A stretch of DNA of 64,000 nucleotides from Dichotomocladium elegans (taxonomy: Eukaryota > Mucoromycota > Mucoromycetes > Mucorales > Lichtheimiaceae). The position numbers and the translations under genes are program-made. Position 1 is the stretch's first letter, and every line of letters begins with the position of its first letter. Below are positions 30,184 through 37,323 of this stretch, one piece after another. The stretch covers positions 496,001-560,000 of the forward strand of contig JAIXMN010000021.1 in assembly GCA_025716815.1 (NCBI GenBank). Reading direction: 5' to 3'. Below the pieces are notes generated by a model. It was given only the letters and a program-made list of their open reading frames with translations, had not been told where the DNA came from and made no database searches.

Positions 30184-31625
30184 CTAAGAGCGTGCTTTCA
30201 GTACTCCCGTATTGCCTTGTTTGTGAAGGTTCAATGATCGACCAGCTTTCGGTTTGTCCTTTGTGTCGATTTGATCCCCAGTTTTGTGCATATCTGCTGA
30301 TATAGGCTCAGGTATCTTTGCATTAGCTGCCAGCTGACTGCGAGTGACGTGTTTGATTAGCATTGTAGAAACTTCTTTTTCGATCGCTTCAATGGTCTCT
30401 TCTGTGCAGCACCCGATATAAGGTGTCAGGATGACGTTGGGGCAACTGCGCAAGGCCAGAAACGCATCGTCGTGTTGGTTTTCGGGATCCAATTCCAGAG
30501 CTGCACCTGCAAGATGGCCTGATCTGAGTGTTTTTACCAAGGCATATGTATCAAGACCGCTGCTCATTTCTGGTGCCATCGTATTAATCAGGTACGCGCC
30601 TGGTTTCATCTGTTTCAACTCGTGAGGACCGAGCCGGACGATCGAAGACGCATGCAGTGATACAAAGTCCGACGCCTGTAACAGCGCTTCAAGACTGTCC
30701 ACTTGCTGAGCGCATCCAAAGGGCATTAGGTTGTTTACGACATCATAAAAATAAACGCGCAATCCCAATGCTTCTGCTAGCATGGAAACCTGTCTTCCCA
30801 CACGACCGTAACCTACGATCCCGAGCACCTTGCCACGGATCTCAAAACAGCCCCGCGATATTTTTTGCCACATCCCGTTATGCATTTCCCGATTCCGGTC
30901 ACCCAGTTGCCTTGCAAGTGCAATGATATTGCCAATGACGAGCTCTGCAACTGAGCGTGCATGATTAAAGGTTGAAGAATAGACATGAACCTGCAAAAAA
31001 CATGTACTTGTTTGGTCTCTCAGAAATTCTGCAAAAGGATAAAATCATAACTCACGTCCTTCCTCACTGCGGCCTGGAGATCAATATGGGCTGGATTTGG
31101 TCCAAAACATCCAATTGCAAGCAAATTGGATGCATAGTTCAGAACTTGGTCTGTTATCCGGGATTTCGGGCCGACGCCGAGAATGTGTGCAGTCCGAATC
31201 GCAGCTAGAAGGTGGCTATGACGGTAGAGATGATGGGATTGTTCGCCAGGGACAAGTGCTTCACTGAACTTTTGTACCTGCTCATCCCGAAGCTCAGTGT
31301 GTAAGCAATAAACGTGTATCCATAGATATGAAGCGTTGGAAACGCCATTTGTCTTAAAACCACGTACCTGGAAACCTGCTTCCTCAAAAGCATCGACTAC
31401 TGTTTGGCCGATATTATCGCTTTCCAGTAAAACAGCTTTAAGTTCAGCCGCCTTAAACAGATTGAAAGCTTTAGGTTTGCTAGAGGGTATCGGCAGATGT
31501 TCGCGTCGCAGTGGCAGAGATGGATCATATTCAGAGGATCCAGTATCATGTGTCGTCGTTGCTGTGGTAGTTCTAGTAGTAATAATGGTAGTAGTAGCGG
31601 ATACAGTGTTTTTCGAGCTAACCAT
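30184..31625 (-). CDS. D-3-phosphoglycerate dehydrogenase-like protein, probable pseudoenzyme
   Basis: A SerA/Ser3-family protein of 428 aa from three exons (31368-31625, 31056-31277, 30990-30184; each exon a multiple of three). After a Thr-rich N-terminus (MVSSKNTVSATTT) the substrate-domain signatures are recognisable (ITDQVLNYASNLLAIGCFG, FNHARSVAELVIGNIIALAR). The Rossmann motif GIVGYGRVGRQVS (residues about 217-229) is intact, so NAD binding is plausible. The catalytic trio is not: the Arg of the family INASRG motif is Ala (LINTMAPE, about residue 299), the Glu of the FPxEP position is Asn (DPENQ, about 331) and the His of TPHIGGSTEE is Tyr (LTPYIGCCTEE, about 351). The ACT regulatory domain is cut after its first strand (LHKQGNTGVLKARS, then stop). 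Normal PGDH activity in serine synthesis is unlikely; a sensor or scaffold role is inference. The open frame shows no stop or frameshift. Confidence 0.88.
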
Positions 31626-35077: not shown

Positions 35078-37323
35078 TTAGGCGGTCTGGTGCACCTTAG
35101 TAACTCTGCCGATAGCAATTGTCTTGCCTTCGTCACGAATAGTGAAGCGGCCAAGCTGGGGATATTGTTCAAAAGTCTCGACACAGATGGGGCCAGCCGT
35201 TTCAATTCTGGCGATCACCTTTTCACCCTGCTTGACGAATGGTGGCGGCCGTTTGGTCTTCTTGCCCGTCTTCTTGTCAATCTTATGCAAAAGAGCAGCC
35301 AAGGTAATTTCCTCGACAGCTGCATGGACGTGCATAACTGCGGTATAACCTGCGCAGATGATATTCTTGTGCTCAAGAATAGCCAACTGGGCTTCTAAAA
35401 CAGTGGTAGCCTTCACGGGGCTCTTCTTGTCGCACAGCACAAAGCCTGGAGAAACTTCCTGTTGTCATCATTGTTAATTTGAGCCATTCTATCGCTAGCA
35501 GTATATCAATTCTTACATCTTCCTCGACACCCTTCAAACGGAGACGAACATTGTCGCCGCAAATGGCATGCTCGACTTCATCTTCGGTCTCATTGTAGAT
35601 CGCGGTAATCTCACAGGCGTGCTAAGATTGGTGGTATGTAATTAATAACATGATGTATTTATTGGCTAATAACCTAGGTCTTCCTACCTTGTTGGGCATG
35701 AGAAGAACCGTCTGGTTCTTCTTGATGTGACCGGACTCGATTTTGCCAACAATAATGGTACCCATGTCCTACAACCGATATTTGTAATGAGCAATTGGTA
35801 ATTCCGATTTACCACCTAACCGCATACCTTATACTTTTCAGCAATGGGCAACATGAGAGGAGCATTGAGTTTTCGGTCCAAGGTCTTCATGGCGTCCAGG
35901 TACTCGAGGAGCGAAGGACCATCGAACCAGGGGCATACTTGTTTGCCGACACGGTCTTTGATATTAGCACCAGTATAGCCACTCACAGGGATGAAGAAGA
36001 CATCCGTCTTGGGGTTGTAACCAGTCTGTTTCAAGAAAGGAGTCAACTTGGTTAAGATCTCGTCGTAACTATGGTAGACATTAGTAATTTCGAGACAGCA
36101 TCGCCCATGATTTAGCATACCGAGCCTTGTCCCACTCGACTGTAGGATCGTCCATCTTGTTAACCGCAATGATCATCTTGTTGATACCTGAGGTCTTTGC
36201 CAACATCATATGTTCTCTGGTTTGACCGCCGCGCTCAAAGCCGGTCTCGAATTCACCCTTACGAGCAGAAATAACCATGACACCAACATCAGCCTGGGAA
36301 GCACCAGAAATCATGCTGGGAACATAGTTTTTGTGACCTGGGGCATCGAGGATGGTATAACGACGGTTGTCGGTTTCAAAATAAGCACGGCCGCACTCGA
36401 CAGTTTTGCCCTGCCATAAGACGTACATCAGCCCAGACGCTCCTCATACCTTATGACACAGTCTCCTCTTTCGTTGCACATTTATTTACCTTAGCACGTT
36501 CCTCAGTACCCGTATCAAGAGCCCAAGAGAGATACCAAGTCTCACGACCAGCATCCTTGGCCTCTTTTTCAATCTTCTCCATTGTACGCTTGTCCACCAT
36601 GCCCGTCAAGAACAGAATGTTACCGCCCATGGTCGATTTACCAGCATCTGTACCAAGGCATTAAGTCTATGTACTCGCCATTTGATCATTCTAGCTCTTT
36701 GGACAATGGAACCTACCGACGTGACCCATGAACACAATGTTGAGATGCTCTTTGCCATATAAATCTTGGAGGACTTCGTCATCAACCTGCTCCAACTCAT
36801 TGCTGACTGCAGCGGCCTTTTCGGCGGCCTTCTCCACAGCCTTCTCAGCCTCCTTCTTCGTAGCTTTCGATGAAGCAGCAGCAGGCTTAGCAGCCTTGGG
36901 GGCAGAAGTAGCGGCAGGTTTAGGGTCAGCCTTTTTGGCAGGTGCTATTATACAAGGACGAAATGAAGTATTGAATTAATGATGTTAAAATCGAGATGAC
37001 GTGACGGACGATGTCATTCTGCAGGAAGAAATAATGTATACTGCACCATGCAAAACTGGTGCACCAGTCTATGGTCCAATCTTTCCTGCATTATAACGGG
37101 CATGCTTTCATCGCAGCTTACCAGGTGGCTGTTGCTGAACGGGAGCAGGAGCGGGAGCGGGAGCAGGAGCAGGAGTAGGAGCCGCTGCAGCAGGAGCCGC
37201 TGGGGGAATGGCGAACGAAGGAACGAATTCCTTGGCAGCGAAGCTAGGCTTCCATTCTGATGCTTTCGGGTTTAGAGACAGCTTGGAGGTTGCTTTTGAA
37301 AGCGAATCGTTGTTCTGGCTCAT
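35078..37323 (-). CDS. Eukaryotic release factor 3 (eRF3/Sup35/GSPT1)
   Basis: Translational GTPase that, with eRF1, ends translation. About seven exons. The short N-terminus MSQNNDSLSKATSKLSLNPK carries two overlapping PAM2-like motifs (LSLNPKASEWKP and SFAAKEFVPSF) that bind the MLLE domain of poly(A)-binding protein, then a Pro-Ala repeat region and an Ala/Lys-rich linker. The GTPase domain shows GHVDAGKST, DAPGHKNYVPSMISG (switch II) and NKMDDPTVEW; the EF-Tu-like domains 2 and 3 run to the end (VGKIESGHIKKNQ, FVLCDKKSPVKA, GRFTIRDEGKTIAIGRVTK). No Gln/Asn prion-like domain is seen, unlike budding-yeast Sup35. Start at 37321-37323, the only ATG before the PAM2 region. The 500 bp beyond the stop, to the small gene at 34311, hold nothing recognisable. 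Confidence 0.95.

What the first reader, a model, noticed from the sequence alone, without database searches (positions are those of the whole stretch)
30184..31625. Phosphoglycerate-dehydrogenase-like protein that has lost all three catalytic residues and most of its ACT domain
The Rossmann NAD motif (GYGRVG) is intact and the frame is uninterrupted, but the family's catalytic Arg, Glu and His positions read Ala, Asn and Tyr (LINTMAPE, DPENQ, LTPYIGCC), and the ACT domain stops after its first strand. Selection has kept the reading frame, which suggests a retained non-catalytic role, for example NAD or serine sensing, or hetero-oligomer control of the true enzyme.
Basis: partly seen in the sequence, partly recalled or inferred. 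Interest (0 to 1): 0.75.

Follow-up and report, generated by a model that had tools for sequence, protein, structure and literature searches.

The report
Dead twin of serine-making enzyme
A mould carries, beside two normal copies of the first enzyme of serine synthesis, a third copy whose active site is gone but whose partner-binding arm is kept, and some related moulds carry partly disabled copies too, which suggests a non-working subunit kept to tune the working ones.

Summary
The minus-strand gene (three exons, 31625-30184; 428 aa) equals BX666DRAFT_2141426 of Dichotomocladium elegans. It is a 3-phosphoglycerate dehydrogenase (PGDH) paralog. Against E. coli numbering R240 and H292 are gone, E269 aligns with Asn (a one-residue gap could rescue a Glu), the substrate Arg R60 is lost too, and the ACT domain stops after its first strand. 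Two complete canonical PGDHs lie elsewhere in the genome. New here: (1) it is not alone. Of 218 PGDHs examined 210 have R/E/H; the other 8 are all from Mucorales. Seven of them, the window protein included, probably form one Lichtheimiaceae clade lacking the catalytic Glu (Q in five, M, N); Mycotypha lost the triad on another branch. (2) The arm with the two residues that in E. coli reach into the neighbour's active site (W139, K141) is its best-kept part: 24 of 27 conserved columns against 85 of 150 elsewhere. Synonymous sites there are near chance level, so selection and not gene conversion kept it. Best reading: a non-catalytic subunit pairing with canonical PGDH. Pairing is inferred, not shown; late decay and a homodimeric NAD-binding protein remain open.

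The parts
31368..31625 (-). exon 1 (residues 1-86): Thr-rich N-terminus and start of the substrate-binding domain
   Evidence: spliced model, identical to P0001
31278..31367 (-). intron 1 (90 bases, GT-AG), same position as in both canonical paralogs
31056..31277 (-). exon 2 (residues 87-160): substrate-binding domain, with ten extra residues (SHHLYRHSHL region, 31209-31238)
31161..31178 (-). GVGPKS, where PGDH has GIRSKT: substrate Arg60 lost
30991..31055 (-). intron 2 (65 bases, GT-AG), same position as in both canonical paralogs
30184..30990 (-). exon 3 (residues 161-428 and stop): nucleotide-binding domain and truncated ACT
30823..30954 (-). subunit arm SVAELVIG...RGKVL, best conserved stretch; holds W201 (E. 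coli W139) and K203 (E. coli K141), residues that in E. coli reach the neighbouring subunit's active site
30796..30813 (-). GYGRVG Rossmann motif, glycines intact
30565..30591 (-). LINTMAPEM: loop that holds catalytic Arg240 in PGDH; no Arg here, 3-residue insertion
30475..30495 (-). ELDPENQ: D264 to Glu, E269 aligned with Asn; followed by a 5-residue deletion
30406..30426 (-). TPYIGCC: catalytic His292 reads Tyr
30187..30240 (-). RSLNLHKQGNTGVLKARS: remnant of the first ACT strand, followed by the stop codon

Best explanation
The gene encodes a catalytically dead PGDH paralog that is kept as a non-catalytic subunit. By sequence it still has the 2-hydroxyacid dehydrogenase fold and the nucleotide-domain arm through which PGDH subunits pair. 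I propose that it pairs with one or both canonical PGDHs of the cell: it lends its Trp and Lys to the partner's active site, has no working site itself, and brings no ACT domain. A mixed dimer would have one working site and one ACT domain; two such dimers could join through the canonical ACT domains into a half-active tetramer with changed activity and serine cooperativity. Shown here: the residue losses, the missing ACT domain, two intact canonical paralogs, preferential conservation of the arm, relatives that lack part of the triad. Inferred: folding, pairing with the canonical enzyme, the regulatory effect.
For: Residues that one chain supplies to its own site (R60, R240, E269 as aligned, H292) are all changed, while the two lent to the neighbour (W139, K141) are both kept (roles from passages of PMC6300728). 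W and K stand in 218 of 218 PGDHs, the 8 triad-losers included. Arm: 24 of 27 conserved columns kept against 85 of 150 in the rest of C50 30-385, p=0.0011; best 44-column run at C50 139-182, 0 of 5000 permutations as high. At unchanged residues of the arm 13 of 33 and 15 of 33 codons are identical to the two paralogs, against 0.30 and 0.32 expected by chance over the gene, so the arm was kept at protein level and not copied. Two canonical PGDHs with R/E/H and full ACT. No stop codon against a neutral mean of 7.3. Precedent: dead paralogs that pair with and activate the live enzyme (PMC5201418, abstract; PMC3663545, start of abstract in the listing).
Against: No direct evidence of pairing; no structure could be predicted and the interface was not mapped on one. 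The arm could be kept for homodimers or folding; W139 matters for oligomer state as such. W and K are invariant in all 218, so their being kept says little alone; 4 lost and 2 kept has a chance probability near 1% if each conserved column is kept at 109 of 177 (my estimate). Of the 7 other triad-losers, tested as the window protein was, three show no arm excess (p 0.22, 0.47, 1.0) and four R/Q/H ones a weak one (27 of 27 in the arm; p 0.047, 0.047, 0.027, 0.027). GC3 is 0.437 against 0.693 and 0.635 in the canonical paralogs and 0.454 GC for the window, pointing to weak expression or relaxed selection. The end branch is about 35 times the median (2.31 against 0.066), 14 times.
Confidence: 0.45

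Rival explanations
1. A gene in late decay: constraint was lifted recently, codon bias and the ACT domain are already lost, and the open frame is left over.
For: Very long end branch, truncated ACT, GC3 near background, no other listed hit above 48% identity.
Against: No stops; exon 3 aligns as one uninterrupted tblastn match; splice sites and intron positions intact; family-conserved sites and the arm kept while synonymous sites are near chance level.
Confidence: 0.2
2. A homodimeric NAD(H)-binding protein acting as sensor or scaffold, comparable in kind to CtBP or plant ANGUSTIFOLIA, without contact with canonical PGDH.
For: GxGxxG and the Asp of YFYD kept; 25 of 33 conserved columns kept in C50 185-245. 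ANGUSTIFOLIA is a 2-hydroxyacid dehydrogenase homolog lacking catalytic residues (PMC6303947, passages).
Against: D264 and HVPE-loop residues changed; K141 would have no evident reason to be kept, though one residue is weak evidence.
Confidence: 0.25
3. An enzyme with changed chemistry that uses other residues.
For: The five R/Q/H relatives keep Arg and His; Gln replaces Glu in most formate dehydrogenases (PMC6303947, passages). P0014, the one R/Q/H protein tested, passes the NCBIfam PGDH cut-off.
Against: Applies to the relatives, hardly to the window protein, which lacks the Arg, the His and R60.
Confidence: 0.07
4. Assembly or gene-model error hiding an ordinary PGDH.
For: Six other annotated proteins of the 218 (four of them R/E/H) also stop just after the first ACT strand, probably by a missed intron, so the truncation alone could be suspect.
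Against: No downstream ACT exon found; model equals the public annotation; exon 3 matches without frame change and no other minus-strand frame shows the motifs. The lost R and H lie inside an uninterrupted exon.
Confidence: 0.03

Closest known systems
Type II PGDH (E. coli SerA, yeast Ser3/Ser33; PDB chains 8pio, 8pir, 8pin, 1yba, 1psd)
   Same: Two-domain 2-hydroxyacid dehydrogenase, GxGxxG, subunit arm with Trp and Lys; intron positions of the canonical paralogs of the same genome
   Different: R60, R240 and H292 lost, E269 aligned with Asn, ACT cut after its first strand. The organism of 8pio/8pir/8pin was not shown by the tool; that 1yba and 1psd are E. coli is recalled and agrees with the residue numbers in PMC6300728
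PGDH paralogs of Lichtheimiaceae with R/Q/H (Zychaea, Fennellomyces, Phascolomyces, two Circinella) and R/M/Y (Lichtheimia ornata)
   Same: Probably the same clade (96/99, 96/97); all lack the catalytic Glu and have a changed GTN loop
   Different: All six keep R60 and R240, five of six keep His; the R/Q/H five have ordinary branch lengths. Four of six are full-length; the two Circinella predictions end at the same point as the window protein
Mycotypha africana P0194 (G/Q/Y)
   Same: Arg, Glu and His all replaced; keeps Trp and Lys
   Different: Groups with Rhizopus-type copies; full-length with ACT; keeps R60
Trypanosomatid AdoMetDC prozyme and dead deoxyhypusine synthase paralog
   Same: Dead paralog beside a live enzyme
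   Different: Other enzyme families; heteromer demonstrated there, only inferred here
Plant ANGUSTIFOLIA and 2HADH subfamily X4
   Same: 2-hydroxyacid dehydrogenase relatives that lack catalytic residues (AN), or His and Glu in about half of X4 (PMC6303947, passages)
   Different: Other subfamilies; not compared by sequence here

Membership tests
Phosphoglycerate dehydrogenase, type II (functional enzyme) | Catalytic Arg240, Glu269, His292 | tested here: not met
   Met/Ala, Asn, Tyr; the Glu assignment depends on one gap
Phosphoglycerate dehydrogenase, type II (functional enzyme) | Substrate Arg60 | tested here: not met
   Gly; the only one of 218 without Arg there
Phosphoglycerate dehydrogenase, type II (functional enzyme) | Trp139 and Lys141 lent to the neighbouring subunit | tested here: met
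Phosphoglycerate dehydrogenase, type II (functional enzyme) | C-terminal ACT domain | tested here: not met
   stops after first strand; no Pfam ACT match, no downstream exon found
Phosphoglycerate dehydrogenase, type II (functional enzyme) | NCBIfam NF008759 score of at least 404 | tested here: not met
   280.6; P0014, P0008, P0194 and canonical P0130 pass
D-2-hydroxyacid dehydrogenase superfamily | Pfam PF02826 and PF00389 over cut-off | tested here: met
   107.4 and 41.7 bits
Dead-paralog regulatory subunit (prozyme-like) | Catalytic residues lost while the protein is under selection | tested here: met
   no dN/dS on the branch itself, synonymous sites saturated
Dead-paralog regulatory subunit (prozyme-like) | Intact catalytic paralog in the same genome | tested here: met
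   L001 and L002
Dead-paralog regulatory subunit (prozyme-like) | Conserved subunit interface | tested here: inconclusive
   arm kept, interface not mapped on a structure
Dead-paralog regulatory subunit (prozyme-like) | Physical heteromer that changes activity | not testable with these tools
   needs co-purification and kinetics
Pseudogene | Stops, frameshifts or broken splice sites | tested here: not met
   none inside the model; early end of the ACT domain is the only truncation

The most novel reading that the evidence does not exclude
In Lichtheimiaceae, and separately in Mycotypha, PGDH has split into a catalytic and a non-catalytic subunit: a two-part first enzyme of serine synthesis, in which the dead subunit completes the live subunit's active site in trans and resets its feedback. 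In Dichotomocladium the dead subunit has gone furthest, dropping its own substrate site and its serine-sensing domain.
Probability: 0.22. Interest if true: 0.75.

Novelty: new variant of a known kind. Interest (0 to 1): 0.5.

Why it matters
PGDH commits carbon to serine and is studied as a regulated oligomer. Natural paralogs that have lost the Glu only, Glu and His, or the whole triad, while keeping the residues lent to the neighbour, would be a natural experiment on how an enzyme subunit becomes a regulator, testable by ordinary co-expression and yeast complementation. I found no PGDH pseudoenzyme described in four searches of an open-licence paper library; the three different papers they listed were checked by passages and deal with other matters.

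Tried and rejected
Pairwise codon model: synonymous sites are saturated between the window gene and both canonical paralogs, so there is no usable dN/dS. I used neutral simulation, conserved-site enrichment and local codon identity instead. Coding DNA of the other fungi is not in the collections offered, so no branch test among relatives.

Placement of the window protein. A tree of 65 of the 201 proteins then held (chosen by me: Mucorales and near relatives plus six outgroups; active-site columns removed) put it in the Lichtheimiaceae clade at 96/99, but joined it to the other long branch, P0008. Without P0008 a quick tree moved it out. A mixture-model tree of 30 rows without ACT columns put it back (96/97; 93/84 without P0008). 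AU tests do not reject a group with the D. elegans canonical copies (p 0.086, 0.286, 0.244) nor one with the Mycotypha protein (p 0.179). At 38 sites diagnostic for the R/Q/H group it shares 10, has the canonical residue at 11 and another at 17; 8 canonical proteins checked share 0 to 4, but the Mycotypha protein, outside the clade, shares 11 and P0008, inside it, 8, so this count does not settle it. Raw identity is highest to Zychaea R/Q/H in one alignment (53%) and to the canonical D. elegans C79 copy in another (54%). Membership is probable, not shown.

Gene conversion from a canonical paralog as cause of the kept arm: rejected. Hidden ACT exon or frame error: none found. tRNA and Rfam scans of the window: no match.

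Sampling: the 218 proteins are the union of the best 120 of three searches, each of which scored about 8000 candidates; they are relatives of the queries and no random sample. Clusters stand for more sequences, and some are metagenome predictions. Families and orders of the odd proteins were looked up (for Circinella on C. umbellata).

Full report
What is there. The window lies in a 39.4 Mb, 122-contig genome; the public protein identical to the gene product names it Dichotomocladium elegans, a fungus of the Mucorales, family Lichtheimiaceae. The gene is on the minus strand in three exons, 31625-31368, 31277-31056 and 30990-30184, with GT-AG introns at the same two places as in the two canonical PGDH genes of this genome, L001 on contig C50 and L002 on contig C79; my spliced models of these equal the public proteins P0130 and P0011. 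A search of the genome with the R/Q/H protein P0014 finds these three PGDH-type genes and, besides, one weak match on contig C90. The product has 428 residues, matches Pfam PF02826 (107.4 bits) and PF00389 (41.7 bits), and its best matches among solved structures are PGDHs.

The losses. Aligned to 1yba (E. coli numbering), the residues that make a PGDH active site within one chain are changed: Arg60 to Gly, the Asn of the GTN loop to Ala, Arg240 to Met or Ala (no Arg in the loop), Asp264 to Glu, Glu269 to Asn as aligned, His292 to Tyr. The Glu call depends on gap placement, since a Glu sits one residue upstream; the Arg and His losses do not. A 4-residue deletion removes part of the HVPE loop and a 5-residue deletion follows the Glu site. 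The ACT domain ends after its first strand; the His of its HxN motif is kept and the Asn reads Gly. No ACT exon was found downstream. Six other annotated proteins of the 218 (P0005, P0022, P0028, P0029, P0041, P0166) end just after the same strand; I take this as an intron position missed in annotation, an inference, and the canonical D. elegans copies have no intron there. The window protein scores 280.6 on the NCBIfam PGDH model, under its cut-off of 404; canonical P0130 scores 561.6.

Not alone. In 218 proteins (the union of three lists of 120 best hits) 210 have R/E/H; 5 have R/Q/H, and one each M/N/Y (window), R/M/Y (Lichtheimia ornata) and G/Q/Y (Mycotypha africana). All 8 exceptions are from Mucorales, 7 of them from Lichtheimiaceae. 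Phascolomyces and Mycotypha have a canonical copy besides the odd one (P0018 with P0021; P0032 with P0194; names, residues), as D. elegans does; for the others I did not check. With active-site columns left out, the R/Q/H five and L. ornata form a clade (SH-aLRT 99, quick tree without the window protein), and the window protein joins it with 96/99 (65 rows) or 96/97 (30 rows, mixture model, ACT left out), 93/84 without L. ornata. Against this, a quick tree without L. ornata did not recover it, and AU tests exclude neither a group with the D. elegans canonical copies nor one with the Mycotypha protein. Mycotypha itself groups with Rhizopus-type copies and is then a separate loss. The R/Q/H five have ordinary end branches (0.017-0.078, median 0.066), so they look constrained without the catalytic Glu; Gln is also what most formate dehydrogenases have there and does not by itself mean inactivity (PMC6303947, passages).

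What was kept. The review PMC6300728 (passages) gives Lys141' of the neighbouring subunit as a cationic residue of the E. [quoted passage not shown] Both residues are kept in the window protein, as in 218 of 218 sequences. The stretch around them is its best-kept part: 35 of 44 residues identical to canonical C50 against 133 of 312 in the rest of C50 30-385 (p=3.8e-6), and 24 of 27 conserved columns against 85 of 150 (p=0.0011, conservation judged on 55 canonical sequences). By region, conserved columns kept are 26 of 55 (C50 30-140), 24 of 26 (arm), 25 of 33 (185-245), 27 of 45 (246-344), 6 of 16 (345-385) and 5 of 23 (370-446) (judged on 57 canonical sequences, hence 26 arm columns instead of 27). 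The same arm test on the 7 other odd proteins gives p from 0.027 to 1.0: the arm excess is strong only in the window protein, because the others have lost little elsewhere. At residues shared with the canonical paralogs, codons in the arm are identical in 13 of 33 and 15 of 33, not far above the chance level of 0.30 and 0.32, so this is protein-level selection over a long time and not copying.

Selection. Evolving the canonical coding sequence (residues 30-395) without selection to the same identity (49%) gave 7.3 stops on average, never fewer than 1 in 500 runs; the real gene has none. Retained residues are enriched in family-conserved columns, 112 of 175 against 55 of 149 (p=1.4e-6). Against this, third-position GC has fallen to 0.437 from 0.64-0.69 and the end branch is 14 to 35 times the median, so expression may be low and constraint is weaker than on the enzymes.

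Mechanism. The pattern, own site void, neighbour-directed residues and pairing arm kept, serine domain lost, is what a non-catalytic subunit in a mixed oligomer with canonical PGDH would show. I give this 0.45. A homodimeric NAD-binding protein (0.25) and late decay (0.2) remain. Pairs of live and dead paralogs are known in trypanosomatids (PMC5201418, abstract; PMC3663545, start of abstract). In yeast the N-terminus of Ser33 is phosphorylated in a TORC1- and Pib2-dependent way (PMC12234008, passages); whether the Thr-rich N-terminus here is regulated is unknown. Searches for PGDH with pseudoenzyme (2 papers), with Mucorales (0), 2-hydroxyacid dehydrogenase with pseudoenzyme (0), and serine biosynthesis with inactive paralog (2 papers) found no such protein; the three different papers were checked by passages. 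A search for PGDH with heteromer listed 12 of 23 papers, none on PGDH mixed oligomers by title. The library lacks most subscription journals.

Limits.

Noticed in passing
P0003, P0014, P0021, P0028, P0029: A PGDH paralog with ordinary branch lengths in Zychaea, Fennellomyces, Phascolomyces and Circinella with Glu269 to Gln and the GTN loop changed to ATE; R and H kept. It may be an enzyme with changed substrate or pH range.
   Followed up: partly
P0194, Mycotypha africana: Full-length PGDH paralog with Arg, Glu and His all replaced (G/Q/Y), placed outside the Lichtheimiaceae clade, beside a canonical copy P0032.
   Followed up: partly
P0005, P0022, P0028, P0029, P0041, P0166: Six annotated PGDHs end just after the first ACT strand, at nearly the same point as the window protein; perhaps an intron missed in annotation, or in Circinella a real truncation.
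   Followed up: partly
P0008, Lichtheimia ornata: R/M/Y paralog predicted with a long N-terminal extension of roughly 140 residues; could be a gene-model fusion.
   Followed up: no
window 31209-31238: Ten extra residues (SHHLYRHSHL) in the substrate-binding domain, absent from the sequences shown; checked by eye on the sequence, no in-frame GT-AG boundary removes them.
   Followed up: partly
window 35078-36169, minus strand: Reading frames resembling translation factor eRF3/Sup35 (name recalled, not searched).
   Followed up: no
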